A stretch of 64,000 nt of DNA, from contig NZ_CP025546.1 in assembly GCF_003614435.1 (NCBI RefSeq), forward strand, positions 1,674,001 through 1,738,000. Direction: 5' to 3'. Both the position numbers and the translations under genes were made by a program. This document shows, one piece after another, positions 6,464 through 30,697 of the stretch. The notes below the pieces were generated by a model, which was not told where the DNA came from, did not search any database, and was given only the letters and a program-made list of their open reading frames with translations. The number at the start of each line of letters is the position of its first letter. Position 1 is the stretch's first letter. This DNA is from Mycobacterium paragordonae (GTDB lineage: Bacteria; Actinomycetota; Actinomycetes; Mycobacteriales; Mycobacteriaceae).

Positions 6464-6483
6464 ACGGGGTGCGCGGGCAGCTA

Positions 6484-11070: not shown

Positions 11071-11129
11071 ATGACGACGCGCACCAGTGACAGACTTCTG
11101 TCCATCGACCGGCTTTAGGAAGTGATGAC

Positions 11130-11747: not shown

Positions 11748-11794
11748 GCCCAGTCGGGGCGACCAGCGCGCTTCAAATCATCTGACGTGAAACA

Positions 11795-14970: not shown

Positions 14971-15603
14971 TTAGTGCCGCCGCGCAGCGGGCGCTCCTGA
15001 CGACGTGACCGAGTTGACCACGCCCAGCACCATGTCGAGGGTGGCCTGTTCTGCCATCTCCCGCTGCTCACTCGATTCATGTTGCGCGCGTTCAAGATCG
15101 GCGAGCAGAGCGAAGACGACGGTGATCAATCCTCGAGTGCGCAGCGCCCGCAGACTGTCTGGCCGGGGTGGGGCCAGGGCTTCGAGGCGTCGCACGATGA
15201 GGGTGGTCGCGGTCCAGTCGCGCCGGCCCGTGAGGTCGACGCCGGGGTAGTCGCGGATCTTCTCCATGAACCGCGCGTGGAAGCCGGGAGCGCAGGCGCG
15301 CTGATGGTCGAAGACAGGCCCCAGCAGCGCCTGCAGCAGCCCGCGGGCGGTGAAGTCGCGCTCGGCCTCCAGCGCGGCGAGCCGTTGCAGACGTTCCGGT
15401 TCGAACACGCTCTGTCGTGCCTCGATGACGGCGGAGATGAGTTGTTCGCGGGTGCCGAAGTGGTATCGGATCGCGGCGCTGTTTCGCTGTCCCGCTGCCG
15501 CCACAACCTGGCGCAGCGACACCGCGGGACCCTGTTCGGCGATGAGCCGTTCGGCGGTGTCGATGAGCGTCACGCGGGCGGGTTCCTTGCTGCCCTCCTC
15601 CAC
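14971..15603 (-). CDS. TetR-family transcriptional regulator
   Basis: 210 residues. The N-terminal domain reads RVTLIDTAERLIAEQGPAVS, LRQVVAAAGQRNSAAIRYHF and GTREQLISAVIEAR, a standard TetR helix-turn-helix. The C-terminal helical domain should bind a ligand that cannot be predicted. It is divergent from the APH-like gene at 15708, about 100 bases away, with an inverted repeat between, and therefore probably controls that gene and itself. Confidence 0.9.
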   Translation of the reverse strand: MEEGSKEPARVTLIDTAERLIAEQGPAVSLRQVVAAAGQRNSAAIRYHFGTREQLISAVIEARQSVFEPERLQRLAALEAERDFTARGLLQALLGPVFDHQRACAPGFHARFMEKIRDYPGVDLTGRRDWTATTLIVRRLEALAPPRPDSLRALRTRGLITVVFALLADLERAQHESSEQREMAEQATLDMVLGVVNSVTSSGAPAARRH

Positions 15604-15634
15604 GTCGCAGAATCTACCACGAATGTATTGCAGA

Positions 15635-15654
15635 GTTAACCCATATGTATTAAC
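15635..15654. promoter_or_regulatory. Candidate operator between TetR and the APH-like gene
   Basis: GTTAACCCATATGTATTAAC: perfect GTTAA/TTAAC arms ten bases apart. The sequence ATGTATT also occurs twice in direct orientation here. The location in the divergent promoter suits TetR binding. Confidence 0.45.
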
Positions 15655-15707
15655 GTCGGCCGGCGTAAAGGCGGTTGCCGCCGAGACTCTGTCGTGAGGT
15701 TTCTTCG

Positions 15708-16817: not shown

Positions 16818-16834
16818 GCCGGGCTGCCCGGCTC
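16816..16834. terminator. Bidirectional hairpin between convergent genes
   Basis: GAGCCGGG, loop CTG, CCCGGCTC: a perfect 8-bp stem overlapping the stop codons of both convergent genes. There is no T run, as is common in mycobacteria. Confidence 0.5.
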
Positions 16835-18101
16835 ACTCCGCCACCGAACTCGCATCGCCCGTCATCCCCAGCCGCTCGCCCAGCCACGGCAGCGTCACCG
16901 CGAAAGCTCCCGCCGCCGACGGCCAGTCGTGCTTGCCCGGCAGCGCCGTCAGTTCACACGAAATGCGGCTGTCCCGAGCGGCCTCGCACAACGCCTCCGC
17001 CGCATCCTGTCCGACACCGTCTTGATCCCCAGAAGTCCCCGGGACCGCGAACAGGCCGGACATGCCGGTGTAGGGACCATGCCGGCGGATCGCGGTCCTC
17101 GGGTCGAACCGCCGGTACGCCTCGGCGTCACCGCCGAAGAGCCGGTCGATCGTCTGTTCCTGCGTGCCCGCGTTCGGTCCGATGTCACCGCCGATGTCGA
17201 CGAAGGCGCGGAAAATCTCGGGATGCATGACCGCCAGGTCGACGGCGCAGGTGCCGCCGGAAGAGAAGCCGACGACACCCCACTTCGGTTGTCCGCCAAG
17301 GCCGAACATATCTCCGATCTCTGGGATCACCTCCGCGACAAGGTGCTGCGCGGCGTTTCCGCGGGGCCCGTCGACGCATTCGGTGTCGACGGCGAATCCG
17401 CCGGTGGCGTCGGCGAAGACGGCGATCGGGGCCTCACCGCGGTGTGCCGCGGCGTATGCATCAAGGGCGTGGGTGGCATTGCCCACGCGAATCCAGTCCG
17501 CCGGAGTGCCGAATTCGCCCCCGATCATCAGGATCGCCGGAAGCGGCTTTCCGCTGAACCAGGCGGGCGGCAGGTAAACCCATTCGCGGCGGTGCGAAAA
17601 CCCCGACATCCGACTCCCGGTGGTCACCGCCACCAGCTTCCCGCCTTGTACCGCAACGCTTTTGCGCTGCATCGCGTAGGCGGCCTTGATGTCGACCTGA
17701 TTATGAAGTGGCCTGTTGGTGAGCTGGCTCCACGCGGCATCGACGGTGGGGAAGTAGCCCAGCCAGCCGTTGATCGTCAAACCGACGCACAGTAGGCAGA
17801 ACGATGTCGCGAATACCGACGCATTGCGCCGCCAACCGCCGGCACCGCGCCAGCCGGCGACGACCGTGGTGGCGGCCAGCCCGAAAAGGAAGACCCACAG
17901 CCAGAGTTGCCAAGGCGCGGGCTCGCTGGCGATTCCCAGCGTGTCGTAAGTCCAGTGCGCCACCGCAACGGTCACCACTCCGGCGGCCACGCCCACGGCG
18001 ACGAGGCGCTTTCGCCACCCGAGGGCATAAAGCAGCGCCGCGACGGTGACGATTTGCACCATGGCGGGAATGATTCCGTGCATCAGCGAGAGGTGCGGCA
18101 C
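16833..18101 (-). CDS. Membrane-anchored esterase-family alpha/beta hydrolase
   Basis: 422 residues. Three or four N-terminal membrane helices (IIPAMVQIVTVAALLYALGW, LVAVGVAAGVVTVAVAHW, WQLWLWVFLFGLAATTVVAG, and ASVFATSFCLLCVGLTI) occupy about the first 120 residues. A secreted-side domain of the putative esterase/antigen-85-like family follows, with nucleophile elbow VVGFSSGGTC and a probable catalytic His in LPGKHDWPS. Mycobacteria have several such proteins with esterase activity; whether this one transfers mycolates is not evident. It starts at GTG 18101, with an internal ATG at 18083 as alternative. It converges on the APH-like gene. Confidence 0.82.
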   Translation of the reverse strand: MPHLSLMHGIIPAMVQIVTVAALLYALGWRKRLVAVGVAAGVVTVAVAHWTYDTLGIASEPAPWQLWLWVFLFGLAATTVVAGWRGAGGWRRNASVFATSFCLLCVGLTINGWLGYFPTVDAAWSQLTNRPLHNQVDIKAAYAMQRKSVAVQGGKLVAVTTGSRMSGFSHRREWVYLPPAWFSGKPLPAILMIGGEFGTPADWIRVGNATHALDAYAAAHRGEAPIAVFADATGGFAVDTECVDGPRGNAAQHLVAEVIPEIGDMFGLGGQPKWGVVGFSSGGTCAVDLAVMHPEIFRAFVDIGGDIGPNAGTQEQTIDRLFGGDAEAYRRFDPRTAIRRHGPYTGMSGLFAVPGTSGDQDGVGQDAAEALCEAARDSRISCELTALPGKHDWPSAAGAFAVTLPWLGERLGMTGDASSVAE

Positions 18102-18227
18102 GTCGACCCTTCAATTCGGACAGACCGAGAGAGTTACCCGCAGTTAGAGCCGGAAAACGTGGCGCGCGGCACTGGGAGTTCGAGGTTCAGGATGACCTTG
18201 CTGTTCAGCCCTCGGCAAGCCAGCTCG

Positions 18228-18291
18228 ATTTTGGAAACAGACTTCGCGAAACCACCAAATCAGCCCAACACGGCGTAATCACCCGAAGCGT
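18228..18291. repeat. Copy 2 of the imperfect ~65-bp repeat
   Basis: It matches 1495-1560 over nearly its whole length with scattered substitutions and small gaps. It covers the last codons and stop of the nitroreductase gene, so the C-terminal tail of that protein (…GDYAVLG) is encoded by the repeat. This may be a scar of a past integration event. Confidence 0.55.
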
Positions 18292-19429
18292 GATCCGGCT
18301 TCGTGCGAGTTTTCGCTTTGAACGCCGCGTGGTTCGCCGCGGGGCGCGCGGTTTCTACGACGCGGGAGAGTTCGCGTCGCGGCGTTGAGGGCAACGGGTC
18401 CGCGCCGTCTGGTGCCCAACCGACTCGCAGCAGCATCTGGGGATGCCCTCGGCCGCCCAGCACCTCGTAGCGAACGGCGTCGCGGGTCGCGGGGATTTCC
18501 AGCGGCTCGGTGATCGGGCAGGTAGCCAGTCCCATCGCCGTCGCGGTGAGCAGGAGCGCACTGGTCGCCTCGCCAGCGCACAGCTGGGCGAGACGGTCGT
18601 CGGATGCGGTGCTGAGCACCAGGATGGCAGCGTTGTCCTCGGAGGGTGAGGCACCGGGTGGCTGCGCCAAGCCAGGCGCCGCGAAGATACGGCCAGGTAT
18701 CGTTGCGCCGCAGTCATGTTCGGGGACGTTGCGGGCGGGAACACCAGCTCGCGACCCGTATCGCCCACTCCACCTGGTGAGCTCGATGAGGTAATCACGG
18801 TTGGTTGCGTGAGCCTGTGCAGCTTGCTTGGCGATGTCGTGCAGTTTGTCCCTGGCGTCGACCGGGTGCAGCATGACACCCATTCGAGCCGCCAGGGCAA
18901 CCATCGAGGCGATATCAGCCGCGGCAACGGGGCGTGGGCTGTAGATTCGCCGATCGGTTCGACGCTGCGTGATCGCCGCCGCCAGAGATATGTCGGCACG
19001 ATCGGGGGCCTGTGGGTACACCTCGATGGTGGCGAGGTGGTCAGGATCGGCCGGATCTGGGTAGCGATGCACGACGGCCCGCCACCCCATCGCTGCCAAC
19101 GCGATGACGCAATGGTTAAGTGCTGCACCGCAACTCACTATCAGATCCCGGCCATCGGGGTCGGTAGCGGCAAGTTGCAGGCCTGGGTCGGCATACAGGT
19201 GCAGACCGCTCTGGTCCACCCGCCAGCGCCACGGCTGCGTGTTATCAATAGACGGTGCCCGGGTCGCCAGTGCGAGGAGTGCACGGATCGCCTCAGCATC
19301 CAACGGTGGGGTGGGCATGGCAGCGGGATCCGCTGCGGCTTCGGTATCAACGCCGCCCGCGACCGCGTTGTCGAGATCACACCGCAACGCCTCACCGCAT
19401 TCTCGATGACCTTGGTTCTTCGAGCTCAC
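18260..19429 (-). CDS. Rv3131-like Acg-family nitroreductase-fold protein
   Basis: About 389 residues. The core matches M. tuberculosis Rv3131 as I recall it: LATRAPSIDNTQPWRWRVD, DPDGRDLIVSCGAALNHCV, ITQRRTDRR, WSGRYGSRAGVPARN and LLLTATAMGLATCPITEPLE. The family has a nitroreductase fold but degenerate FMN sites and is induced by hypoxia and NO through DosR in M. tuberculosis; its role is unclear. The GTG at 19429 (or 19432) has a perfect AGGAGG at 19438-19443. This gives a 37-residue N-terminal extension over the ATG at 19318 that Rv3131-type alignment would favour and that has no ribosome site. It is divergent from tgs1, as in M. tuberculosis. The last residues are encoded by a repeat. 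Confidence 0.9.
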   Translation of the reverse strand: MSSKNQGHRECGEALRCDLDNAVAGGVDTEAAADPAAMPTPPLDAEAIRALLALATRAPSIDNTQPWRWRVDQSGLHLYADPGLQLAATDPDGRDLIVSCGAALNHCVIALAAMGWRAVVHRYPDPADPDHLATIEVYPQAPDRADISLAAAITQRRTDRRIYSPRPVAAADIASMVALAARMGVMLHPVDARDKLHDIAKQAAQAHATNRDYLIELTRWSGRYGSRAGVPARNVPEHDCGATIPGRIFAAPGLAQPPGASPSEDNAAILVLSTASDDRLAQLCAGEATSALLLTATAMGLATCPITEPLEIPATRDAVRYEVLGGRGHPQMLLRVGWAPDGADPLPSTPRRELSRVVETARPAANHAAFKAKTRTKPDHASGDYAVLG

Positions 19430-19503
19430 CACGACCGCCTCCTGACTTCCTCTTCGGCTCAAGGCTTTCGACTGCTGCCGGCTCATTGGTGATCCGACGA
19501 CTC

Positions 19504-19545
19504 TTGCTCCAAGAGCAATTTTAATGAATAATATCCTTTAAATAA
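19504..19545 (+). promoter_or_regulatory. tgs1 promoter region with palindrome and shared AT-rich element
   Basis: TTGCTC-CAA-GAGCAA (19504-19518) is a perfect inverted repeat. It is followed by TTAATGAATAATATCCTTTA, whose core recurs upstream of regulator B at 27952. TAATAT at 19529-19534 could be the -10 box, about 50 bases before the tgs1 GTG. No DosR box of the TTSGGGACTWWAGTCCCSAA type is visible between the two divergent genes. Confidence 0.55.
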
Positions 19546-19586
19546 AGGGTGAGCAACTGGTGGCATGCAGATGGGAGGTGCTGGTT

Positions 19587-20996
19587 GTGGACGAATTGAC
19601 GACCCTGGATGCGGGATTCCTGAAAGCCGAAGACGCCGACCGGCACGTGAGTTTGGCGATCGGTGGTCTGGCGGTCATCGAGGGACCGATCCCGGACCGT
19701 GCGGCGCTGCTGACGACACTGGCGCAACGGATCCGCGCCTGCCCTCGATTCGCGCAACGGCTACGTACGCGTCCGCTGGATCTCGGTGCACCGCAATGGG
19801 TGGACGATCCCGACTTTGATATGGGCCGCCACGTTCGGCGCCTCGCGCTACCATCGCCCGGAGACGACCAAGAGTTGTTCCAACTGGTCGCCGACGTCAT
19901 TTCCCGGCGTCTGGACCGGGATCGACCGCTGTGGGAAATCTGGATCATCGAAGGCCTCAGTGACAACCGGTGGGCAATGCTGACCAAGATTCACCACTGT
20001 ATGGCCGACGGAATCGCCGCCGCCCACATGCTCGCCGGGCTATGCGATGACGGCATCGACGAGAGTTTCGCCAGCCGCATCCGCGCCACCAAAGAGTCGC
20101 AGGAGCAAGGGCTTTCGGGCGGCATACGGGGTGTAAGTCCACTGAGCGCCCTCGGTGGGGTGTGGAGAGCCTCGGCTGCCATGGCGGCGACCGCGGCCCG
20201 CACGGCGATGGGTGCTGCCGAGATTGCCGCTGGGTTGCTGCGCCCGACCACGACGTCTCTGAATGGGCCAATCACCACATTGCGCCGCTACAGTGTGGCG
20301 CGGGTACCGCTGGCCGACATCGCGCAGGTGTGTCAGGCATTCGATGTCACCATCAATGACGTTGCGCTGGCTGCGATTACGGAAAGCTTTCGCAACGTCC
20401 TCATCGCACAGGGTGAAACGCCCTCGCCCGATGCGCTGCGCGCATTGGTGCCGGTGTCGATGCGCTCCGCGGAGGGGTTCGCCATGGCCGGCAACCGCGT
20501 CTCGGTGATGCTGCCTTACTTACCGGTCGATGAGGGGCACCCCGTTCAGCGGCTGCGGATGGTCCATTCACGATTGCATCGCACGAAGTCGCACGGTCAG
20601 CGGCAGGCGGGTCACGCATTCGTGTCAATGGCCGATCGCATTCCGTTTCCGCTGACCGCATGGGCGGTCCATCTGGTGACCCGGTTACCGCAGCGTGGTG
20701 TCACGACATTGGCGACGAATGTTCCCGGCCCTCGTCAGCCCCTGAAACTCATGGGCCAGCGGGTGCTCAGTGCATTCCCGGTGCCGCCGATCGCGATGCA
20801 GTTGCGAACTGGGGTGGCGATGTTCAGTTATGCGGACGACTTCTTCTTCGGTGTCCTTGCCGACTATGATGCCCTGACTGATATCGACGCCATGACGCGC
20901 GGAATCGAGCTGGCGGTGGCACGACTGATGACAATCGGCAAGCAGCACAGGCGATTACGTGGTCGCCGTGGACTGTCGCTGATCGTTGACGGCTAG
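19587..20996 (+). CDS. tgs1: Triacylglycerol synthase Tgs1-like (WS/DGAT)
   Basis: 469 residues. The start LTTLDAGFLKAEDADRHVSL, the catalytic HHCMADG (HHxxxDG), NDVALAAITESFRNVLI, TNVPGPRQPL and AMQLRTGVAMFSYADD follow M. tuberculosis Tgs1 (Rv3130c) closely as I recall it. The enzyme esterifies diacylglycerol with acyl-CoA to make storage triacylglycerol during hypoxia and dormancy, at the inner membrane or lipid droplets. The GTG at 19587 has GGGAGGTG upstream at good spacing. It is divergent from the Rv3131-like gene, the same pair arrangement as in M. tuberculosis, but its promoter carries a different regulatory element. Confidence 0.93.
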   Translation: MDELTTLDAGFLKAEDADRHVSLAIGGLAVIEGPIPDRAALLTTLAQRIRACPRFAQRLRTRPLDLGAPQWVDDPDFDMGRHVRRLALPSPGDDQELFQLVADVISRRLDRDRPLWEIWIIEGLSDNRWAMLTKIHHCMADGIAAAHMLAGLCDDGIDESFASRIRATKESQEQGLSGGIRGVSPLSALGGVWRASAAMAATAARTAMGAAEIAAGLLRPTTTSLNGPITTLRRYSVARVPLADIAQVCQAFDVTINDVALAAITESFRNVLIAQGETPSPDALRALVPVSMRSAEGFAMAGNRVSVMLPYLPVDEGHPVQRLRMVHSRLHRTKSHGQRQAGHAFVSMADRIPFPLTAWAVHLVTRLPQRGVTTLATNVPGPRQPLKLMGQRVLSAFPVPPIAMQLRTGVAMFSYADDFFFGVLADYDALTDIDAMTRGIELAVARLMTIGKQHRRLRGRRGLSLIVDG

Positions 20997-21197
20997 CCGG
21001 ACCACGACCGTGGGAACGCGCAGCTGATGCGGTGATCGTCCGCGGTGCATACCGCACCGGCCTGCAGGCATGCGGGCCATGGCCTTTGGGGATGAATGGT
21101 CATATCGCGTACCGCAGGGTTTGCGAACACCTCAAGGAAATCGACCGTACGGGTGGGGTGGTACTGCTGACGGCGTCTCGCGATGTCAAGTTGCACG
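20997..21197. other. Gap between convergent tgs1 and NirK-fusion genes
   Basis: Short open frames exist on both strands (for example 21032-21220 forward) but none has a ribosome site or a recognised motif. I see no hairpin terminator. Confidence 0.5.
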
Positions 21198-23789
21198 TCA
21201 CCGGCCTGCGACCTCGATGATGCCATGGGCGCCGCGCTCGGCGTCGACCATCGCGTGTGACACGAACGGGTAGCGACCGGGCTGGCCGAAACTCATTTCG
21301 ACGAATCCGCCTTGGGCCGCGAACAACCCGAGGGCCTGGGCACCGCCTGCGCTCGGGCTTCCCTTGCCGCCAAGCCGGTAGTCGCCCTCGGACCATACAG
21401 TGTCGAACTGACCCCCGACGACGTGGAACGAGGTGCCACGATTCGGTCCGGCTGCGAGGACCCAGATGCGAACGCGCTCGCCCACCCGCGCGACCAATGG
21501 TGCATGGTCGTATTGGCGGGCATAGCCGTTGAACACCACCAGGTCGGGCTTGTCCGCGACGACCTTGTCGCCGTCGGCAACTTCGCCGGGCGCGCCGAGG
21601 TACATCTCGGACTGGACGATCACATACTCGCGATCGACGCGCGGCAGGTCCGGCGGGTCGATGACAACCGCCCCGAACATGCCGTTGGCGATATGCAGTG
21701 ACATCGGCATCGTCGAGCAGTGGTAGAGCCAGATGCCCGCCCGCGTCGCGGTGAACCGATACACCAGGCGCTGACCGGGCTGGATGGTCCGCATCGGTTC
21801 GTCGGGGGCGAGCGCACCCGCGTGGAAGTCGATCGAATGCCCGGTGGTTCCGTCGTTGACAAGGGTGACCTCGAAGACGTCGCCGACCTTGCCGTGCAAT
21901 GTGGGGCCGGGTGCGGTGCCGCCAAACGTCCAGAGCCGCTGGCTGATTCCGGGGGAGACCTCCCGTTGGACCTCGTTCACGGGCAGCGTCACACGGTGCT
22001 CGGGCGTTGCCGGCGGCAGCGCGGCGTCGCGTGCGGTGAAGCCCGGCGCCGGGTCTGCGCTGAGGCTGCGCGCGATATCGCCGGCGGAGATCGGTGCGGG
22101 ATGCGGCGAGTCGTGCGAGTCGTGGTGGGCCGGGTGGGCGGGGGGCATCGGTGCACCGGTGACCCGGACCGAAAAGGTCATGCCCATCTGCCGGTGTCCG
22201 GCCACCGCGCACCAGCCGTCGAGGCTGGAGCCGATCACCCCGGCGTCGAGAACGGCCGACTCGCCCGGCGCGATCCGGCCGGTGCGGGTGCCGTTGGACA
22301 GCACCAGGTCGTGTTGGTCGGTGCCGGTGTTGTCCAGGGTGATCTGCAGTCGATCTCCAGCCGGAATCTCGACCGCGTCCGGCACGAAACGCATGCCCTC
22401 GATGCGGACCGAGACCATGGTGGTGTGGCCCGTGGCGGCCACCGCCACCTGCGGCGGGGTGCCGAATCCGAGCGACGCCGGGTCCGCGGCGACGGCGGCC
22501 GCAGTCGTCAGCACCACGACCCCGAGTCCGGCGGCGGCGACGCCGAGCCGGCGCCGCGGTGGTGCCATTTGGGGTTGGCCTGGAGCGGAAGGCTTTTCGC
22601 GATCGCGGTGTACCCGCCACACCGCCCGAACCAGCAGCGGCAGGAAGGCCGCGTAGGCCACCAGCACCAGCATTGACGCCGCGACCCGCACCAGACTGGG
22701 AGTCGGAAGGACGCAGAGCGGCAGCCCGGCGTTGGCGACGGTGAGCCGCCAGGGAGCCCCCCGCTCGAGTTCGGCTCCGGCCGCCAGCGTTGCCTGACGC
22801 CCACCCATCACCACGGGCGCCAGGTAGGTCAGTGACCCGAGTAGCACCTGCACCAGAAAGCCGGCCAGCACCGGCGCGGTGAGTTCGCCCGCCGCCGCGA
22901 CGGCTGCCGGCCAGGTCGGCGAGATCGCCAGTGCGACGGCGGCGAAAGCCAGCGACCCGAACAGCCAGGCGACGCCGGCCAAGACCGACAGCGTCGCAAA
23001 GTCGTTGGGCCGCTTGCGGCGGATCTCGTCGAGGTGCGGCCGCAGCACCATCCCCGCGGCACCCAGATACCCGACGACACCCAGGCCGGCGATCGGCGGT
23101 GAGCCCATCACCGCACCGCCGGCGGCCACGGCCAGCGCGGTGAGCAGCATCGGCAGGCCGCGGCGAGCGGCCACTTCGACTCCGTTGGCCATCCGGGTGC
23201 GCAGCATCGTCGGCCACAGTGTGACGAGCGTGCCCAGCACCGTGAGCGCCACCCAACCGAACAAGTTCAGCGCCGCATGTGCGATGACGAACCGCTCGTG
23301 GATATTGCCGGGGAGCGCCGGATTCGCCATCGCCACACCAAGTCCCGCGCCGATCGCCAGACACCCCGTCGCGGCGACGTAGTAACGCACGGTGACGCCG
23401 AAGCGGGCGGGTAATGCGGTGCGCAGCTGCCGTAGAAGTGTTGCCCCGTGTGCGAGGGCGACGACGGCGACCACGACACCGCCCGCCAATACCATCGGCC
23501 ACCACCGGCCGAGCATTCCGACGACCACAGTGACGGCGCCGGCGTTAAAGGCACTGAGGCGCAACGCTTCCGCCGTATGCTTCGGATCGGGCGGCCGACG
23601 CAGCAACGCATCGGCGAAATGCCGGCTCCAGATCAAGATGGCGTTTCCGGCCGCTCCAAGCGCCAACAGATGGATCAGCAGCCAGCCGGACAGCGGAAGG
23701 AACCGATGCGCGGCCGCCACCGCGACGAGCGCAACGAGCCAGGCGAACACGACCGCCCCGACACGCAGATGCCATCCCGAGCGATTCAT
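21198..23789 (-). CDS. Membrane-cupredoxin-NirK fusion: copper nitrite reductase-like oxidase
   Basis: 863 residues. Residues 1-400 contain about ten membrane helices. A single cupredoxin-like domain follows (about 455-540: IEIPAGDRLQITLDNTGTDQ, GWCAVAGHRQMGM), then a His-rich linker, then a two-domain copper nitrite reductase-like module (585-863). All NirK copper ligands are present: type 1 His651, Cys691 (YHCSTMP), His699 and Met704; type 2 His656, His690 and His789. Asp654 sits where the catalytic Asp98 lies (HSIDFH). It should reduce nitrite to NO, or act as a related copper oxidase, on the outer face of the membrane. Its ATG overlaps the stop of the NnrS-like gene (ATGA), so it is the third gene of a regulator-led operon. 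Confidence 0.85.
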   Translation of the reverse strand: MNRSGWHLRVGAVVFAWLVALVAVAAAHRFLPLSGWLLIHLLALGAAGNAILIWSRHFADALLRRPPDPKHTAEALRLSAFNAGAVTVVVGMLGRWWPMVLAGGVVVAVVALAHGATLLRQLRTALPARFGVTVRYYVAATGCLAIGAGLGVAMANPALPGNIHERFVIAHAALNLFGWVALTVLGTLVTLWPTMLRTRMANGVEVAARRGLPMLLTALAVAAGGAVMGSPPIAGLGVVGYLGAAGMVLRPHLDEIRRKRPNDFATLSVLAGVAWLFGSLAFAAVALAISPTWPAAVAAAGELTAPVLAGFLVQVLLGSLTYLAPVVMGGRQATLAAGAELERGAPWRLTVANAGLPLCVLPTPSLVRVAASMLVLVAYAAFLPLLVRAVWRVHRDREKPSAPGQPQMAPPRRRLGVAAAGLGVVVLTTAAAVAADPASLGFGTPPQVAVAATGHTTMVSVRIEGMRFVPDAVEIPAGDRLQITLDNTGTDQHDLVLSNGTRTGRIAPGESAVLDAGVIGSSLDGWCAVAGHRQMGMTFSVRVTGAPMPPAHPAHHDSHDSPHPAPISAGDIARSLSADPAPGFTARDAALPPATPEHRVTLPVNEVQREVSPGISQRLWTFGGTAPGPTLHGKVGDVFEVTLVNDGTTGHSIDFHAGALAPDEPMRTIQPGQRLVYRFTATRAGIWLYHCSTMPMSLHIANGMFGAVVIDPPDLPRVDREYVIVQSEMYLGAPGEVADGDKVVADKPDLVVFNGYARQYDHAPLVARVGERVRIWVLAAGPNRGTSFHVVGGQFDTVWSEGDYRLGGKGSPSAGGAQALGLFAAQGGFVEMSFGQPGRYPFVSHAMVDAERGAHGIIEVAGR

Positions 23790-24877
23790 GCCGGCACCCG
23801 ACCGGCCGCACGCGTCGCCGAATACCCGGCGACGGCGATGAACCCCAGGACAGCCACGATGTTCAGCACGCCACCCGCCTGGAGCGCCCAGTTGATGCCG
23901 CGCGCGTCACCGACCGCCAGTCGCAGCAGCAGCGACAGGTGCAAGAGCGCCGCCGGGCCGTACATCAATTGGGTGTAGGGCAGCGGGCGACGTAACACAG
24001 CGGGCAGAATCACGGGTGCGTGCGCCATGATCATCGACAGCACAAAGCCCAGCATCACCGCGTGCACCACGGCGTCATAGCCTGCGCCGGAACGGATTTG
24101 GCCGACCAATAGCCAGATAGACGCCGGCACCAGCAACCACACGTAACCGGCAAGCAGGCACACCGCCATGTATCGGGTCAGGCCCGTCGCGCGCACGGTG
24201 TGGCGAGCGACGTCGAACCGGCCCAGCCACACCACCGTCGCCAGCAGCGCCGCGCCGAGGATCGGGTAACCGGGTCCCTGCCACAACAATGCGGCGACGG
24301 TACCGGCGACCATGGCCACCACGACGACGATCAGCAGCGTCTCGGCGGGGGTGCCGAGCATCGTCACGCGGGCCAGCTCGAGGCGCTCTCCGACGATCGT
24401 GAGGATGAGAAAGCCCGACAGCCAGGGCAATACGTTGGGAACCGGCACACCGCCCAGCCACAACAGCGCCGCTCCGGTCGCCAACACCGCGCCGGCCATC
24501 TGCAACACGATCGCGACGTCGGCAGATCGCCGCCACAGTGACACGTATACCCCGAGCAGCACCGCCGACCCGGTGAGCAGCAGCACAGGGCCAAGGTTTC
24601 GGGGTGCCGGGCCGACCAGCAGTATCGCGCCGACGCCGAGGAATGCCGGACTCAGATAGGCCCACCATCGACGCGCGGCCACTGCGCGCTCCAGCGCAAT
24701 CACCGTTCCGGCGAACCCGAGTACCAGCAGGACGCCGTGCACTTCGGCCAACCGTATCGTCGTGATCGGTGCGGGCAGGCCGAGGAGCACCAGCGCCGCA
24801 TCGAGTCCGGCGAGGAGCGCGAACCCGCCGGGAACCAGGAGTAGCGATCGGGCCGGGGTGTGTCGGTCAGTCACCAT
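23786..24877 (-). CDS. NnrS-like polytopic membrane protein
   Basis: 363 residues and about eleven membrane helices. Conserved His-Gly and Ala-His positions (EVHGVLLVLGFAGTVIALER, VVHAVMLGFVLSMIMAHAPV) recall NnrS, a heme- and copper-containing membrane protein that counters nitrosative stress. I infer the family from these motifs, the helix pattern and the partner genes. The ATG at 24877 overlaps the end of the regulator gene by 11 bases, and its own end overlaps the NirK-fusion start. A longer frame up to 25105 exists only as a shadow of the regulator gene. It could instead be a distant heme-copper oxidase-like protein. Confidence 0.65.
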   Translation of the reverse strand: MVTDRHTPARSLLLVPGGFALLAGLDAALVLLGLPAPITTIRLAEVHGVLLVLGFAGTVIALERAVAARRWWAYLSPAFLGVGAILLVGPAPRNLGPVLLLTGSAVLLGVYVSLWRRSADVAIVLQMAGAVLATGAALLWLGGVPVPNVLPWLSGFLILTIVGERLELARVTMLGTPAETLLIVVVVAMVAGTVAALLWQGPGYPILGAALLATVVWLGRFDVARHTVRATGLTRYMAVCLLAGYVWLLVPASIWLLVGQIRSGAGYDAVVHAVMLGFVLSMIMAHAPVILPAVLRRPLPYTQLMYGPAALLHLSLLLRLAVGDARGINWALQAGGVLNIVAVLGFIAVAGYSATRAAGRVPA

Positions 24878-25589
24878 GTCGCACAACGGGTTCGGGCATG
24901 AACAGCCGGCAGGCGCCGGGTTCGGCGAATGGAATGAGGTCGAGCCCCCGGCCGCTGGGGGCGCCGAGGCGCTCCAGCATTCCCTCGACGATGCCGAGGT
25001 GGACCTGACAGACGACGGTGGGGTAGCGGCGGGCGGCGTCCAGCAAGGGGCAGCGGCGTAGCGCGATGCCTCCGATACCCTCGTGGGCGCCCGGGGTGCC
25101 GCCATCTTCGTCGTCGGGCGCGAAGCCCAGGCGGGTCAGCGCCGCGAGCACGGACTGCCGCGGATCGCCGCCGGCCCGATTGCCCTCGTCGACGAGTTCG
25201 TGTCCCCACTCGATGCCGGCCGCCCGCGCATCGCGCTCGGGGTGGACGCTGGTGCGCGCCAGATGACCGGCCAGTGCGGTCGCCAGACCGGCGTAATCGC
25301 GGACCGCGACGGTGGGGTCGGCGGCCGACACGCGGTACAACGTGGCCGGACGTCCGCGTCCGAGCGCCGTTGCGGCGGAGCGCTCCACGAGCCCGAGTTC
25401 AGCGACCGCGTCGAGGTGTTCGCGAACGGTGTTGGGATGCAGTTCAAGAGCGCTGGCGGCTTCGGCGACCCGGACGGGGGAGTGTGCGCGCACGTACTCG
25501 AGCACCCGCAGCCGCTGCCCGGACAGCGCCACCGGGGCCCGGAGCACCGGTGTCGGAGCGGGGCCCAAAACCGCCAGGTCTTTTTTCAC
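24867..25589 (-). CDS. Regulator A: winged-helix protein with Cys/His sensor motif
   Basis: 240 residues. The N-terminal winged helix reads LRVLEYVRAHSPVRVAEAAS, then LELHPNTVREHLDAVAELG and GRGRPATLYRV, close to ArsR/DeoR/SufR-type regulators. The C-terminal domain has LRRCPLLDAARRYPTVVCQVH and a later Cys, that is C-X13-C-X2-H-X29-C. This suggests a metal or Fe-S cluster that could sense NO or O2. Two paralogues (28001 and 29682) share the pattern. It heads the NnrS-like/NirK-fusion operon and is divergent from a hemerythrin gene, with a palindrome three bases before its GTG start, so autoregulation is likely. Sensor chemistry is inferred. Confidence 0.82.
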   Translation of the reverse strand: MKKDLAVLGPAPTPVLRAPVALSGQRLRVLEYVRAHSPVRVAEAASALELHPNTVREHLDAVAELGLVERSAATALGRGRPATLYRVSAADPTVAVRDYAGLATALAGHLARTSVHPERDARAAGIEWGHELVDEGNRAGGDPRQSVLAALTRLGFAPDDEDGGTPGAHEGIGGIALRRCPLLDAARRYPTVVCQVHLGIVEGMLERLGAPSGRGLDLIPFAEPGACRLFMPEPVVRHGD

Positions 25590-25591
25590 GG

Positions 25592-25609
25592 AATTTATTG
25601 TAGTAAATT
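25592..25609. promoter_or_regulatory. Palindromic operator candidate at regulator A
   Basis: AATTTA-TTGTAG-TAAATT: perfect 6-bp arms in an otherwise GC-rich region, between regulator A and the divergent hemerythrin gene. Confidence 0.5.
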
Positions 25610-25682
25610 AGGGGCGATGCAGATAGGGCAATGAGTCACCTTCGCTCAGCGAGCTTCTGGGACTCAACGGAAAGGAACCAAC

Positions 25683-26450
25683 ATGTCAGGCACCGACGTG
25701 ATCGTCGCTTCCACGGCCGCTGACGCCGATGCGGCCGAAGCCATCAAGGGGCATCACGCGCAGCTCGCAGGGCAGCTTGCGGTGCTCACCGATGCGATGC
25801 TGTGGGCGGTCGAGCGCGGTGCGGCCTTCGAGCCGCCACGAGCCGCTGCCCTGGTCTTCCTGACCGGCGAGCTATTGCCGCACGCCGCCGCCGAAGAGGA
25901 GCGCCTCTACCCGGCCGCCACTCATTCGGAGCGCGTCCGGCCGCTGGTCGAATCGATGATCGCGGTGCACCGCATCATCGGCTCCCTCGTCGAGCGCATC
26001 CGCATAGAGCCGCCGGTGCGGGCAGCCGCGTGCGGTCACGCCCTGCGAGTGCTGTTCGACGCACACCTTGTTGACGAGAACGAGCGGCTCTTGCCTGTCG
26101 TGGCTGCCGATCCCGACGTTTCCCTCGTCGAGGTGACCCATGGCATGCACGAACTCGTCGGACGTGCGGACTCCGCCAACGATGCCGAGCCATTACACAG
26201 CTGCGGCTGTTGTGAATCCGACGCTGACGATCCGGTGCTCGACGTTCGCGAGGTGCCGCACTCGATCCGGCATGCCACCGTGTTCGGCGCGTTCGATGCC
26301 GTTCCGGCCGGCTGCGCACTGGTGCTGATAGCTCCCCATGATCCGATCCCGCTGCTGCGTCAACTCGACCACCGTGCCGCGGGCCGGCTCGAGATCCAAT
26401 ACGAGCAGCGCGGGCCGGAGGCCTGGCGGCTGCGACTGATCAAGCGGTGA
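25683..26450 (+). CDS. Hemerythrin-DUF2249 fusion protein
   Basis: 255 residues. The first 160 or so form a hemerythrin (HHE) four-helix domain, with the metal-binding pattern visible as KGHHAQL, LPHAAAEEERLYP, AVHRIIGSL and FDAHLVDENERLLP. Such domains carry a di-iron site binding O2 or reacting with NO. A linker with SCGCCESD joins it to a DUF2249 domain (VLDVREVPHSIRHATVFGAF...). DUF2249 occurs in denitrification and NO clusters. ATG with AAAGGA six bases before. It is divergent from regulator A. The likely role is NO or O2 sensing or scavenging in the cytosol. Confidence 0.85.
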   Translation: MSGTDVIVASTAADADAAEAIKGHHAQLAGQLAVLTDAMLWAVERGAAFEPPRAAALVFLTGELLPHAAAEEERLYPAATHSERVRPLVESMIAVHRIIGSLVERIRIEPPVRAAACGHALRVLFDAHLVDENERLLPVVAADPDVSLVEVTHGMHELVGRADSANDAEPLHSCGCCESDADDPVLDVREVPHSIRHATVFGAFDAVPAGCALVLIAPHDPIPLLRQLDHRAAGRLEIQYEQRGPEAWRLRLIKR

Positions 26451-26469
26451 ACGGCGGCCGGCTTCACCT

Positions 26470-26661
26470 CTAAAGTTCGCGAGACAAGGCCGCACGAGGG
26501 CACGCTTCGATGGCCTGTGCGACAAGCGTCTCCTGCTCGACGGGGACGGGGTCGGTGATGACCACGGCGTATTCGTCATCGTCGAGTGCGAACACCTCCG
26601 GGGCGATATTCACACAGAACGCATTGCCCTCACATCGATCGCGGTTTACCACGACTCGCAT
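26470..26661 (-). CDS. Small [3Fe-4S]-type ferredoxin
   Basis: 63 residues from MRVVVNRDRCEGNAFCVNIA. Cysteines occur as C-X5-C and later in ACPRAAL, the three-Cys pattern of 3Fe-4S ferredoxins that often serve P450s. An in-frame start sixteen codons upstream gives an Arg/Pro-rich extension unlike the family, so I use 26661. It is the last gene of the osmC-hemerythrin-ferredoxin unit, 63 bases after the hemerythrin gene. It probably supplies electrons to a partner enzyme of the region; no adjacent P450 is present. Confidence 0.85.
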   Translation of the reverse strand: MRVVVNRDRCEGNAFCVNIAPEVFALDDDEYAVVITDPVPVEQETLVAQAIEACPRAALSREL

Positions 26662-26724
26662 CAAAATCCTCCTTACACCCGAGCCGGGACGTCGTACGGG
26701 GCGGCGCATCGCAACAGCCAGATC

Positions 26725-27198
26725 TCACCCGCCGGCTTGCTGGCACACCCACCCCTCGGGGGCGCGGCCGGTCACGATGAACCGGGTCAGTTCCGCGCTC
26801 GTATGTGGTGGCAGTTCTGTGTCCGCGTTCGGATAGATGACCGGCTCCTCTTTGGAATTGTGCTGCAGCAGTTGATCCAGCAGCTTTATGGACATATCCC
26901 TGAGCCGTGAATAGTCGTGTCCGTCGGCGAGCAGATCCGTCAGTGCGTCCATTGTCTGCCACAGCTGACCGTGTTCGCGCATCATCACAAAGATCGGCAT
27001 CACGACCCCGGCGTCGCGCAGCGGCGGAAACAGGAACACTTCTTCGAGATAGATGTGCCGGCGCAGCGCTTCCAACGTCCCGGTGAGCGATTCGGTTTGC
27101 ACGCTGCCGCAATCGAGCTTCTCGATGAAGGCCTGCAGCGCAGCGTCGATTTCGCGGTGTTCCCGCGTCAGCTCGGCCGACAAACTCGGACTGGACAT
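26725..27198 (-). CDS. Hemerythrin domain-containing protein
   Basis: 157 residues, essentially one HHE domain: ELTREHREIDAALQAF, RRHIYLEEVFLFPPLRDA, MMREHGQLWQTMD and LQHNSKEEPVIYP give the His/Glu ligands of a di-iron centre. The ATG at 27198 is used; a frame reaching 27414 is only a shadow of osmC. It lies 16 bases after osmC and before the small ferredoxin, one transcription unit behind the palindrome at 27715. The likely function is O2/NO binding or redox-stress defence. Confidence 0.87.
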   Translation of the reverse strand: MSSPSLSAELTREHREIDAALQAFIEKLDCGSVQTESLTGTLEALRRHIYLEEVFLFPPLRDAGVVMPIFVMMREHGQLWQTMDALTDLLADGHDYSRLRDMSIKLLDQLLQHNSKEEPVIYPNADTELPPHTSAELTRFIVTGRAPEGWVCQQAGG

Positions 27199-27214
27199 CT
27201 TGTGCACCTCTGCG

Positions 27215-27682
27215 TCAGCCCGCGTGACGGACAGGTTCGCTCTCGTCGAGCTCGGCATCGACACTGATCGTGGCACCGGCGAACAATCGCGAAACCGGAC
27301 ACAGGCCGGCAGCCTCGCCCACCACGGCCGCGAACGCCTCCTCGTCCAGGCCCACGACACGAGCCCTGACCTGCAACCGCGACGCGGTGATCGTCGGGAC
27401 TCCGTCGACCGCATCCAGGGTCACGGTGGCGGTGACATCGAGTCGCTCTGGCGGCGTGTCGTTTTCACCTAGTTTCAGGGCCAATGCCATTGAAAAGCAC
27501 GATGAGTGCGCTGCTGCCGCCAGCTCTTCGGGGCTGGTCTTGCCGCCCGGCTGCTCGGTGCGGGAGGCCCAGGTCAACGGCAGCCCATCCAGGGCTCCTC
27601 TACTGCCCTGCGACAGCTTGCCTTCGCCAGACGCCAACGGCCCTACCCATGTGGTCCGCGCGGTCCGATCCGCGATGCTCAT
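27215..27682 (-). CDS. OsmC/Ohr-family peroxide-defence protein
   Basis: 155 residues. The two redox Cys are visible in AAHSSCFSMALALKL and GLCPVSRLFAGA, the OsmC/Ohr pattern of thiol-dependent hydroperoxide reduction. The Glu-Glu-Leu segment before the first Cys (SPEELAAAAH) is also typical. It is cytosolic and uses a dithiol reductant. It leads the osmC-hemerythrin-ferredoxin operon, and a long palindrome lies 33 bases before its ATG, suggesting it responds to the same signal as fdxA, whose promoter carries the same element. Confidence 0.9.
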   Translation of the reverse strand: MSIADRTARTTWVGPLASGEGKLSQGSRGALDGLPLTWASRTEQPGGKTSPEELAAAAHSSCFSMALALKLGENDTPPERLDVTATVTLDAVDGVPTITASRLQVRARVVGLDEEAFAAVVGEAAGLCPVSRLFAGATISVDAELDESEPVRHAG

Positions 27683-27714
27683 ATTGCTCGACCCCTTTTC
27701 GCAGCTGGGCAGTA

Positions 27715-27739
27715 TTTATACAAGTTGTACTTGTGTAAA
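27715..27739. promoter_or_regulatory. Long palindrome upstream of osmC, copy 1 of a shared operator
   Basis: TTTATACAAG-TTGTA-CTTGTGTAAA, 10-bp arms with one mismatch, followed by CTCTA. The same arms and CTCTA recur upstream of fdxA at 29299 with a four-base spacer. Confidence 0.7.
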
Positions 27740-27946
27740 CTCTAGACTGTCACCTTGGGCATTGGCCAGGTCTATCGCGAGGCAGCGAGCATGCAATCGA
27801 CGGCAGCGATTCCTCGCCCCGTGACTCTGTCGCGACCTTGTCCGCCGAACTCAGTCACTCCACCATGGTGTCCGGCACGGCGCACCTGGTCTTCTCCTGT
27901 GCCGCAACGCCGTTCGTTATCGGGAGACAGCCGTGGCAGCCGGTGC

Positions 27947-27974
27947 TATTATTAATGAATAATATCCTCTAAAT
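27947..27974 (+). promoter_or_regulatory. Palindromic promoter element of regulator B, shared with tgs1
   Basis: TATTATT-AATG-AATAATA is a perfect 18-bp palindrome (27947-27964). The stretch from TTAATGAATAATATCCT to YTAAAT (27952-27974) matches 19521-19543. TAATAT at 27960 may be the -10 box about 40 bases before the start codon. The rest of 27740-27946 and 27975-28000 shows no gene. Confidence 0.65.
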
Positions 27975-28000
27975 CGGCTGGCGGGACGGGACGAGAGGAC

Positions 28001-28756
28001 ATGCGGGTGGGCAAGCACGACAAGGGCGAGGCCGGACAAACGCATCACGCGGGTCGCAATCGGCAACGCCAACGAGTTCTGCAACTGGTGCGCGAACACG
28101 ACGAGCCGGTCGACGCAGACGAGCTGGCCGCGCGGCTGGGCCTGCACACGACCACGGTCCGTTTCCACCTTGACGGGTTGTGCGACGAGGGAGTCGTGGA
28201 GCGCAGCCGGATCACGCGAGCCGGTGTGGGTCGTCCGCGCACCGGCTACCTCGCGGTGCGTGAGCGGCTGGACTATCGAATCGTGGCCGAGATACTGGCA
28301 CTGGAGCTGGGCGACACGGCCGACAAGCGGCGCCGTCGCGTCGAAGCCGCCGGCCGGCGCTGGGCTGAGCGGATCCCCGATGGCGTCTTGTACGAAGACA
28401 CTGCGGGACAACGTATTCCGGACGAAGTCGGGCCGGCGAAGTTCGTTGAAGCGCGAGCGGCATTGATCACCACGGTGTTCGACCGGATGGGTTTCGGTCC
28501 CGAGCTGACCGCGGCCAGAAAATCGTCCGACGGCAACCAGCGGACCATCCGTCTGTACCGCTGCCCCGTCCGCGATCTGGCCCGTGATCACCCGGAAGTG
28601 GCGTGTGCCCTGCACCGGGGGTTGCTGCAGGGACTTGTCACGAAGTCGGCAGCGCGCGGGGGGAATTCGGCCGTTTCGGAGCCGCGGATGCATGCCGAGC
28701 TCAAGCCCTTCGTCGAGCCCGAACTATGTCTCGCCAGGGTGATCGCGTGTGACTGA
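28001..28756 (+). CDS. Regulator B: winged-helix protein with Cys/His sensor motif
   Basis: 251 residues. Winged helix: RQRVLQLVREHDEPVDADEL, RLGLHTTTVRFHLDGLCDEG and GRPRTGYLAV. The C-terminal signature is LYRCPVRDLARDHPEVACALH then FVEPELCLARV: C-X13-C-X2-H-X37-C, with one more Cys two residues from the end. It is paralogous to regulators A and C. The ATG at 28001 sits only two bases after AGAGG; a GTG at 28007 would have better spacing. Its promoter carries an 18-bp palindrome, shared in part with tgs1, so it may regulate itself and tgs1. The ligand is unknown; NO or O2 is an inference from the neighbourhood. Confidence 0.82.
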   Translation: MRVGKHDKGEAGQTHHAGRNRQRQRVLQLVREHDEPVDADELAARLGLHTTTVRFHLDGLCDEGVVERSRITRAGVGRPRTGYLAVRERLDYRIVAEILALELGDTADKRRRRVEAAGRRWAERIPDGVLYEDTAGQRIPDEVGPAKFVEARAALITTVFDRMGFGPELTAARKSSDGNQRTIRLYRCPVRDLARDHPEVACALHRGLLQGLVTKSAARGGNSAVSEPRMHAELKPFVEPELCLARVIACD

Positions 28757-28804
28757 CATGTGCGCCCCGGTTGGCCCCGCGATGCCACGTTCAGGTTCCG
28801 GGCA

Positions 28805-29277
28805 TCAGATGGTTTGGTGACGCCCGAAGAATTCATGATCTTCGTTGTAACCGCCGTACCCGCTGCCAAGGTCGGAGTAGTTCGCGACAAACTCAATGCC
28901 CTTGAGCCACTTCACATGCCGAAAGCCATGCTGCAGCTCATTGCGAAGCCGCAGCGGCGCCCCGTGGCCGTAGGTTAGCGGCTCCGTTCATGTCGTAGGC
29001 CAGCATGCTCAGATGGTGGCTCACCCCATTTCGCCGCACCCGACCAGCCCCGGATGCAGAAGTGCTGGGTGATCTGTTCGTGGTAGGGCAGGCCGTGCAA
29101 GTCCGCCAGGGAGAACTCGCTCGGATGCTCGACAAGGCCGTAGACCTGGAGGCACCAGCCCGCAACCAGTAGCGCAAACCCGATGGGAATCAGCCACAGG
29201 GTGCGCAACGAATGACGCGGTGTGCCGGGGCCGCGGCTACCCAGGGAGTGTCGGAAGCGGGTTACGTTGTCGGTCAT
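28805..29277 (-). pseudogene. Decayed molybdopterin-dependent (sulfite oxidase-like) oxidoreductase
   Basis: The 5' part encodes a membrane anchor (LRTLWLIPIGFALLVAGWCL) and LADLHGLPYHEQITQHFCIR plus GWSGAAKWG, typical of the sulfite-oxidase fold with its molybdenum-binding Cys. The sequence then jumps to SMLAYDMNG in another frame and, after a further frame change, to LTYGHGAPLRLRNELQHGF and GGYNEDHEFFGRHQTI, the family C-terminus. An internal deletion of a substantial part of the domain and at least one frameshift are therefore present. No functional product is expected. It is divergent from fdxA. Confidence 0.8.
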
Positions 29278-29298
29278 GGGCGCTCACGCTCAGTGTGG

Positions 29299-29322
29299 TT
29301 TATACAAGACTGCTTGTGTAAA
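29299..29322. promoter_or_regulatory. Palindrome upstream of fdxA, copy 2 of the shared operator
   Basis: TTTATACAAG-ACTG-CTTGTGTAAA followed by CTCTA, ending ten bases before the fdxA ATG. It has the same arms as the osmC element at 27715. Confidence 0.7.
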
Positions 29323-29331
29323 CTCTACGCC

Positions 29332-29685
29332 ATGACATATGTAATTGGGGAGCCGTGCGTTGATGTGATGGACCGGGCCTGCGTCGAGGAATGTCCGGTC
29401 GATTGCATCTACGAGGGTGGTCGCGCGCTCTACATTCATCCTGACGAGTGCGTGGATTGCGGTGCGTGCGAGCCTGTTTGCCCCGTCGAGGCGATTTACT
29501 ACGAGGACGATCTGCCCGAAGAGTTGCGCCCCTACCAAGCGGACAATGCGGCGTTCTTCTTCGCGACGCTTCCTGGCCGTGACGACCCCCTGGGGTCGCC
29601 GGGCGGAGCCGCCAGGATGGGTGCCCTCGGCGTCGATGCACCGTTGGTGGCCAGCCTGCCCCGGCGTGACCCTGAGCGATTATGA
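29332..29685 (+). CDS. fdxA: FdxA-like seven-iron ferredoxin
   Basis: 117 residues, very like M. tuberculosis FdxA (Rv2007c) as I recall it: MTYVIGEPCVDVMDRACVEE, CPVDCIYEGG, CVDCGACEPVCPVEAIYYED and the tail DNAAFFFATLPGRDDPLGSP. The Cys spacing gives one 3Fe-4S and one 4Fe-4S cluster. It is a cytosolic electron carrier, DosR-induced in M. tuberculosis. Here a palindrome shared with osmC lies directly before the ATG. The stop overlaps the ATG of regulator C (ATGA), so ferredoxin and regulator are translationally coupled. Confidence 0.92.
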   Translation: MTYVIGEPCVDVMDRACVEECPVDCIYEGGRALYIHPDECVDCGACEPVCPVEAIYYEDDLPEELRPYQADNAAFFFATLPGRDDPLGSPGGAARMGALGVDAPLVASLPRRDPERL

Positions 29686-30356
29686 GTCCAGTCGAAGTGC
29701 GACGCGAGGAGTCCTCGGGTCGGCGTGGTGATGTGCTGCGGGCATTGAAAGCGCGATCAGGCCCGATGAGCATTACTGAGATAGCCAAAGTGCTTGATGT
29801 GCACTCTAATACAGTCCGTTTCCATCTGGACACGTTGGTCAGCGAGGGCCGGGTTGAGCATGTCGCGCCAGATCGCAAACGGCCTGGGCGGCCACCGCTG
29901 ATGTTTCGCGCGATTCCACAGATGGATCGCAGCGGACCACGTCATTACCGGTTGCTCGCCGAGATTCTCGCGTTGACTCTCGCCTCCGGTCGCGATGCCA
30001 GTGGCAAGGCACAAGCCGCGGGTCGTACGTGGGGGCGGGAGTTCACAACGAGCTCGCCGCGGGGGAAAAGATCAAGCATCAACGGCTCTGTCAACCACCT
30101 CGTAGAGGTCCTCGACGATTTCGGGTTTGCGCCCGAGCGCCGCAGATCCGGGGGAGAGCACCAGATCGGCTTGCGCCACTGCCCATTCCTCGAACTCGCC
30201 GAGACCCGACGCAAGGTAGTCTGCTCGATCCACCTGGGCCTCATGCAAGGAATTCTCGAAAGCCACGACGCATCAGTTGCTGTCGACCGACTGGATGCGT
30301 TCGTCCAACCCGATCTCTGTCTGGCTCACTTGAGACCGCAAGGGAACTCTCGGTGA
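29682..30356 (+). CDS. Regulator C: winged-helix protein with Cys/His sensor motif
   Basis: 224 residues. Winged helix: GDVLRALKARSGPMSITEIA, KVLDVHSNTVRFHLDTLVSE and RPGRPPLMFRA. Signature: LRHCPFLELAETRRKVVCSIH then FVQPDLCLAHL, C-X13-C-X2-H-X28-C. It is closest in layout to regulators A and B. Its ATG overlaps the fdxA stop, a strong sign the regulator acts with this ferredoxin, perhaps by sharing cluster status or by feedback on the operator at 29299. The role as repressor or activator is not known. Confidence 0.83.
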   Translation: MSPVEVRREESSGRRGDVLRALKARSGPMSITEIAKVLDVHSNTVRFHLDTLVSEGRVEHVAPDRKRPGRPPLMFRAIPQMDRSGPRHYRLLAEILALTLASGRDASGKAQAAGRTWGREFTTSSPRGKRSSINGSVNHLVEVLDDFGFAPERRRSGGEHQIGLRHCPFLELAETRRKVVCSIHLGLMQGILESHDASVAVDRLDAFVQPDLCLAHLRPQGNSR

Positions 30357-30697
30357 GCCCAGTGGTCGCCGCCGCCTTGACCTCGTAGCCACTACGCCCA
30401 AGTCGGCCTCGAAGTGGTCAAATCGATCGCGCTGGCCGTTGTGGGTGTGCTTCTCCTGTCGGGACACCCGCCGACGTAACGGCGTCGTCGACTCTAGGCC
30501 GGGGATCGGCCGGGGATCGGCTGGGCCGCCAGGGGCCGCCGAACGCAGGACATCTTGGCTTCGGCGGCGCCGTTTAAGATAATGCGATTTGCCGATAACG
30601 GGTTTTCGTCGGCACTAGGCGGGAAGTTGATATCAGTACGGGCGCGGCTCCTAGAGGGGGAGGTGACGTCGATGTTCGACACAAGGAAACGACCGGC
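30357..30697. other. Intergenic region with a short tandem repeat
   Basis: No gene is recognisable. A direct tandem repeat of GGCCGGGGATC occurs at about 30497-30520. An AT-richer patch near 30570-30600 (GTTTAAGATAATGCG) could hold the promoter of the KAS-like gene. Confidence 0.45.

What the first reader, a model, noticed from the sequence alone, without database searches (positions are those of the whole stretch)
18260..30356. A 12-kb hypoxia/NO response region built around three paralogous regulators
Seen: Rv3131-like nitroreductase, tgs1, regulator A-NnrS-like-NirK fusion operon, hemerythrin-DUF2249, osmC-hemerythrin-ferredoxin operon, regulator B, and fdxA-regulator C. Known: Rv3131, tgs1 and fdxA are DosR targets in M. 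tuberculosis, and NnrS and DUF2249 proteins cluster with denitrification genes. Inference: an NO/O2-responsive system in which DosR-type target genes sit among dedicated local regulators, with nitrite reduction, NO binding (hemerythrins), thiol peroxidase and lipid storage under joint control.
Basis: partly seen in the sequence, partly recalled or inferred. Interest (0 to 1): 0.78.

Follow-up and report, generated by a model that had tools for sequence, protein, structure and literature searches.

The report
Three sibling regulators with separate operators
In a non-tuberculous mycobacterium, three sibling regulators that look like iron-sulphur sensors each appear to have their own DNA switch, and one of them seems to run a fat-storage gene that lost its usual low-oxygen (DosR) switch through a small deletion.

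Summary
The genes are there (the label NnrS is not supported) and parts of the grouping are conserved, but control looks partitioned, not joint. The three regulators are SufR homologues with a near-invariant three-Cys signature, and each tree group goes with its own promoter motif. M1 (RegB) lies before tgs and regB: only two sites in the 7.2-Mb genome; 13 of 14 M1-bearing genomes among 148 also carry regB. M2 (RegC group) lies before osmC, fdxA-regC, related ferredoxin genes and a fourth paralogue. M3 (RegA) lies between regA and the hemerythrin-DUF2249 gene. No DosR box was found in the window. The genome has a true DosR-DosS pair elsewhere, and a second acg/tgs pair with a DosR box beside a DosS/DosT-like kinase. 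In relatives the orthologous tgs promoter carries both M1 and a DosR box; here a net loss of roughly 110-225 bp took out the DosR box and brought M1 to -64 of tgs. So this tgs copy appears rewired from DosR+RegB to RegB alone. RegB's predicted sensor domain has a Bet3-like fold. Protein-site pairing, Fe-S binding, NO/O2 sensing and repression are inferred, not shown.

The parts
18260..19486 (-). acg (Rv3131-family FMN oxidoreductase); likely start near 19318
   Evidence: NF047509 337 bits; PDB 2ymv E 7.7e-42
19523..19543 (+). M1 site before tgs (its TTAAAT end read as -10: inferred)
   Evidence: 0 mismatches; 1 of 2 sites in the genome; -64 from the tgs start
19587..20996 (+). tgs (wax ester/triacylglycerol synthase family)
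   Evidence: TIGR02946 456 bits; GTG start by alignment with relatives
19544..19586 (+). tgs leader in which the stretch holding the DosR box in relatives is missing
   Evidence: box inside the largest gap in 7 of 8 pairwise alignments
21198..23789 (-). NirK fusion: TM part, cupredoxin, copper nitrite reductase
23786..24877 (-).
   Evidence: about 11 hydrophobic stretches; no PF05940 match
24867..25589 (-). regA, SufR-homologous HTH regulator
25587..25608 (-). M3 site at the regA start, in the regA / hemerythrin-DUF2249 intergenic region
   Evidence: unique in the genome at up to 3 mismatches; longer form at regA in 32 of 49 regA-type loci
25683..26450 (+). hemerythrin-DUF2249 protein
   Evidence: PF01814, PF10006
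26470..26709 (-). 4Fe-4S ferredoxin; likely start near 26661
   Evidence: PF13459
26725..27198 (-). second hemerythrin
   Evidence: PF01814; start by reading frame
27215..27682 (-). osmC
   Evidence: PF02566
27716..27739 (+). M2 palindrome before osmC
   Evidence: relatives
27954..27974 (+). M1 site before regB
   Evidence: second of 2 sites in the genome
28001..28756 (+). regB, SufR-homologous HTH regulator
29300..29322 (+). M2 palindrome (spacer 4) before fdxA
   Evidence: sequence; relatives
29332..29685 (+). fdxA
   Evidence: NF045480 176 bits against cut-off 125
29682..30356 (+). regC, SufR-homologous HTH regulator

Best explanation
The region holds three insulated circuits built on one sensor chassis: a SufR-homologous HTH regulator whose C-terminal domain carries three near-invariant Cys and one His, most likely an Fe-S cluster site. 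RegA acts at M3, between its own operon (regA, TM protein, NirK fusion) and the hemerythrin-DUF2249 gene. RegC, and a fourth paralogue elsewhere in the genome, act at M2 before fdxA-regC and before osmC-hemerythrin-ferredoxin. RegB acts at M1 before its own gene and before tgs, next to acg. Loss or change of the cluster under NO, O2 or iron stress would release repression. In relatives tgs has two modules in series, M1 distal and a DosR box proximal; in this genome a deletion removed the DosR module and left M1 as the only recognisable control. Shown: genes, homology to SufR, motifs and their places, co-occurrence of M1 with regB, the missing stretch relative to relatives. Inferred: which protein binds which site, repression rather than activation, the Fe-S ligand, the signal, and that the missing stretch is a real deletion.
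For: M1: 2 sites in 7.2 Mb, none in the reversed control; 23 sites in 14 of 148 genomes, 21 of them before regB or between acg and tgs; 13 of the 14 genomes have regB, which is in 28 of 148, Fisher p 3e-10 (related genomes are not independent); matrix hit before 27 of 28 regB genes, 19 of the 20 that gave no site to the matrix. M2: of 29 opened loci 24 lie directly before osmC, fdxA, a ferredoxin or a RegC-group gene, plus L168 with its flank cut. M3. Three Cys 130, 129 and 129 of 130 sequences, His 128 of 130; SufR homology 98.5%, E 1.6e-15; the matching Cys of Rv1460 are required and the protein binds Fe-S (PMC6034842, passages). DosR box and M1 together in 8 distinct relatives' tgs promoters.
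Against: No binding, expression or spectroscopy. M2 at up to 3 mismatches is no more frequent in 148 genomes than its reversed control (60 rows against about 65, counted by hand), so single M2 sites are weak without their neighbours; 4 of 29 opened loci fit no such gene. One M1 genome (G088) lacks a regB match, and two M1 sites (L099, L115) lie before other genes. One regB gene (L141) has no site. The M2 spacer is 5 at osmC and 4 at fdxA. M3 was not found in its longer form in 17 of 49 regA-type loci. The third Cys is absent from the one SufR row in the alignment column used, so ligand spacing differs.
Confidence: 0.6

Rival explanations
1. One reading: one joint NO/O2 regulon of DosR-type targets with helper regulators.
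Against: No DosR box found in the window or in the fdxA and osmC promoters opened; three different motifs.
Confidence: 0.12
2. M1, M2 and M3 are promoter signatures (for a sigma factor or another regulator) rather than operators of RegB, RegC and RegA.
For: All three overlap likely -10 elements; no binding data; part of the conserved M3 block is the regA start codon and first codons.
Against: M1 goes with regB across 148 genomes and lies before regB in 13 of 23 sites; the motifs are palindromic or nearly so; motif classes follow the regulator groups of the tree.
Confidence: 0.15
3. The regulators sense something other than Fe-S/NO, for example zinc or a small hydrophobic molecule in a Bet3-like pocket.
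For: Predicted Bet3-like sensor fold; one of the Bet3-type matches is a palmitate-bound protein (6aq3); Cys/His sites also occur in zinc sensors (general knowledge).
Against: Homology to SufR including its CP...C segment; neighbours are ferredoxins, hemerythrins and a nitrite reductase.
Confidence: 0.2
4. The missing DosR stretch before tgs is an assembly error, or DosR acts through a weak site that the patterns missed.
For: No reads were available; DosR sites can be degenerate.
Against: Best match to the core in 19319-19600 has 4 mismatches of 12 fixed or two-fold positions; M1 and the tgs ribosome-binding site both stand intact on either side.
Confidence: 0.15

Closest known systems
SufR (Rv1460 and cyanobacterial SufR)
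   Same: HTH plus a C-terminal CP-x-Cys segment; profile-profile 98.5%, E 1.6e-15 over 164 columns; three Cys.
   Different: Far below the SufR model cut-off (RegA 23, RegB 24, RegC 18 bits against 178.8); not beside suf genes; Cys spacing differs (C-x13-C here, C-x12-C in Rv1460); other motifs. The genome has its own SufR before sufBD.
DosR (DevR) regulon of mycobacteria
   Same: Acg, Tgs and FdxA families; relatives' tgs promoters carry a DosR box.
   Different: No DosR box found here; the DosR-boxed acg/tgs pair of this genome is another copy.
Actinobacterial NirK with N-terminal TM and cupredoxin parts
   Same: Same architecture as the ~900-aa NirK of Propionibacterium acnes described in PMC4770552 (passages).
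   Different: Here preceded by a SufR-homologous regulator and a TM gene of unknown family.
MsvR of methanogens (HTH + V4R redox regulator; recalled)
   Same: HTH plus Cys-bearing domain; weak HTH-only NCBIfam hit for RegB, E 0.007.
   Different: No V4R model among the families listed for RegB, nor among the 25 most frequent of 96 in its alignment; kinship not tested.

Membership tests
SufR | Sequence homology over HTH and sensor part | tested here: met
   hhalign 98.5%, E 1.6e-15
SufR | Score over the SufR equivalog model cut-off | tested here: not met
   18-24 bits against 178.8; so homologue, not SufR
SufR | Three Cys for an Fe-S cluster | tested here: met
   three conserved Cys, 129-130 of 130, with other spacing than Rv1460
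SufR | Binds an Fe-S cluster; represses | not testable with these tools
   needs protein work
DosR regulon | DosR box in the promoter | tested here: not met
   none in the window; present in 8 relatives' tgs promoters
Copper nitrite reductase NirK | Homology and copper-site residues | tested here: met
   PDB 2dv6 aligned, with the HSxDFH, YHC, SFHV and SHA segments in place (the role of these residues is recalled); TIGR02376 165 bits, under its cut-off of 296
NnrS (PF05940) | Match to the family model | tested here: not met
Bet3/TRAPP-like fold (sensor domain of RegB) | Structural match of residues 87-251 | tested here: met
V4R / H-NOX kinship of that fold | Match to a V4R or H-NOX member | tested here: inconclusive
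   none listed; the kinship is recalled

The most novel reading that the evidence does not exclude
A family of SufR-derived sensors with a Bet3-like (possibly V4R/NO-sensor-related) domain has been copied into three insulated circuits, for nitrite reduction, lipid storage and Fe-S/thiol protection. One of them, RegB, forms with DosR a dual-input promoter on tgs in slow-growing mycobacteria, and lineages have dropped one input or the other: the window keeps M1 only, M. nebraskense (L016) a DosR box only, eight other distinct tgs promoters both.
Probability: 0.4. Interest if true: 0.75.

Novelty: new variant of a known kind. Interest (0 to 1): 0.6.

Why it matters
Tgs1-made storage fat is a standard marker of DosR-driven dormancy in M. 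tuberculosis (recalled). Here a set of orthologous tgs promoters in other mycobacteria carries a second module that goes with a SufR-like regulator, and a natural loss separates the two inputs, so the question of which signal drives storage lipid becomes testable by comparing species. It would fit a report, seen by me as passages only, that triglyceride production in M. avium was comparable with and without DosRS (PMC11876180). It also proposes concrete operators for regulators that the databases name only 'helix-turn-helix' or 'ArsR family'.

Tried and rejected
DosR control of the window genes: set aside for lack of a box. NnrS family: not supported. RNA element: no Rfam match at gathering score in 17500-31000. 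SufR's own fold: its model was poor (pLDDT 63), so I ran no fold search with it; its order of helices and strands in the aligned part resembles RegB's. The library of viral structures gave HTH-type and weak matches. PDB by sequence with RegC gave three matches at E 0.07-0.7; the profile of the group gave HTH matches and, at E 1.9, an archaeal TRAPPC3 over the sensor part. Padloc and PHROGs libraries were not used.

My first gene maps used NirK and second-hemerythrin queries in a wrong frame. One search repeats the map with frames checked; the places stood and the identities changed. Counts of NirK and of the regA-hemerythrin pairing are; the M1 and M2 counts do not depend on the two faulty queries.

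Literature: ten searches, read as listings, showed no paper on these three regulators, these motifs or a DosR+RegB tgs promoter; that covers this open library and those terms only. Passages were read of PMC6034842, PMC8494734, PMC4770552 and PMC11876180; no paper was read whole.

Full report
What is there. The window lies in a 7.22-Mb genome of five contigs, a mycobacterium whose regA is nearest to that of M. nebraskense among the 80 loci kept (90%). The NirK fusion (TM part, cupredoxin, nitrite reductase) is a known actinobacterial type (PMC4770552, passages).

The motifs. By eye, the promoters of tgs and regB share a 21-bp sequence (M1), those of osmC and fdxA a palindrome (M2), and regA has its own (M3). 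M1 occurs twice in the genome at up to 3 mismatches, both here, with none in the reversed control. In 148 genomes of the genus there are 23 sites in 14 genomes and none in the control: 13 before regB, 8 between acg and tgs, 2 elsewhere (L099, L115) (with the two own sites added). RegB at E<=1e-30 is in 28 of 148 genomes and in 13 of the 14 with M1 (Fisher p 3e-10; the genomes are related, so the p is too small). The other 15 regB genomes mostly have a diverged site: a matrix from 11 sites finds one before 27 of 28 regB genes (own left out), and before 19 of the 20 that gave it no site, at p<=0.015 against 200 shuffles each. In one relative the core reads as a near-perfect palindrome (GAGGAATAATATCCTC, L128). 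M2 with spacer 5 at up to 3 mismatches occurs in 31 of 148 genomes; its 60 rows are no more than the reversed control's (about 65, hand count). Its meaning rests on its neighbours: of the 29 loci opened (the best of each genome; the own site and G012's had none opened there), 24 lie directly before osmC, fdxA, a related ferredoxin or a RegC-group gene, L168 (flank cut) has osmC downstream, and four (L174, L178, L181, L191) have other genes. In the 80 named loci M2 at up to 4 mismatches gave 23 hits, 22 of them within reach of such a gene or of regC, against 2 in the reversed control. The fourth paralogue of this genome has an M2-like site too. M3 is unique in the genome; a longer form stands at or just before regA in 32 of 49 regA-type loci, with no hit in the reversed control.

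Conservation of the grouping. The scan found 462 confirmed relatives and kept the best 80. Of these, 49 (L016-L064) are of regA type: 40 have hemerythrin-DUF2249 next to regA and 38 have NirK nearby, from mycobacteria to Rhodococcus, Streptomyces, Thermocrispum and Propionibacterium; some contigs end early (my count). Of 31 loci of C type (L065-L095), 11 have fdxA before the regulator. The full 12-kb set is not fixed: regB, regC, fdxA and the osmC operon come and go.

DosR. The genome has DosR (PDB DevR E 4.7e-114) with a DosS-type kinase (DevS GAF E 4e-43), and another two-GAF kinase. Beside the latter sits a second divergent acg/tgs pair, 64% and 63% identical to the window's, with a DosR box 84 bp before tgs. 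In the window no such box was found, and the best match in 19319-19600 has four mismatches. In relatives the window's tgs has M1 at about -173 to -288 and a DosR box at about -57 to -74: 8 distinct promoters, 13 loci counting five repeats from a second collection. M. nebraskense (L016) has the box and no M1 within 600 bp at up to 3 mismatches. In the window M1 lies at -64 and the stretch with the box is absent; in 7 of 8 pairwise alignments the largest gap contains the box, in one (L025) the aligner puts the gap elsewhere. I read this as a deletion in this lineage that left tgs behind the M1 promoter; an assembly error is not excluded. None of the fdxA or osmC promoters opened shows a DosR box at up to one mismatch.

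Reading. Homology, places of motifs, co-occurrence and the promoter comparison are results. That RegB binds M1, RegC or its paralogue M2 and RegA M3, that they repress, and that they sense NO, oxygen or iron through an Fe-S cluster are inferences from SufR and from the neighbours.

Noticed in passing
window 28975-29277 (-): Open frame starting with a TM segment, divergent from fdxA, that looks like the decayed start of a membrane oxidoreductase gene; a similar piece (78% over 32 residues) lies near regB in L125, and a related-looking ORF lies behind an M1-like site in L115.
   Followed up: partly
window 27770-27858: Relatives (L023, L025, L027, L028) have a further acg-family gene (32-34% identical to the window's Acg) between osmC and regB; here DNA matches jump over it, so it is missing.
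   Followed up: partly
L149:6932-7591 (+), own genome C1:2549932: Fourth paralogue with an M2-like site, divergent from a methyltransferase gene; in G088 (L099) an M1-like site stands before a similar methyltransferase and an OsmC-like gene.
   Followed up: partly
L017, L020, L023, L025 and others, between M1 and the DosR box before tgs: A conserved stretch after M1 with a possible short leader frame.
   Followed up: no
L178, L191: M2-like sites 270-298 bp before TrkA-like genes in two genomes; perhaps chance.
   Followed up: no
window 4099-18101: Neighbours: P450 (4099-5397), PPE protein with pentapeptide repeats (8476-10950), AAA-LuxR regulator (11795-14611), TetR (14971-15603), phosphotransferase-family protein (15675-16817), esterase (16833-18101).
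   Followed up: no
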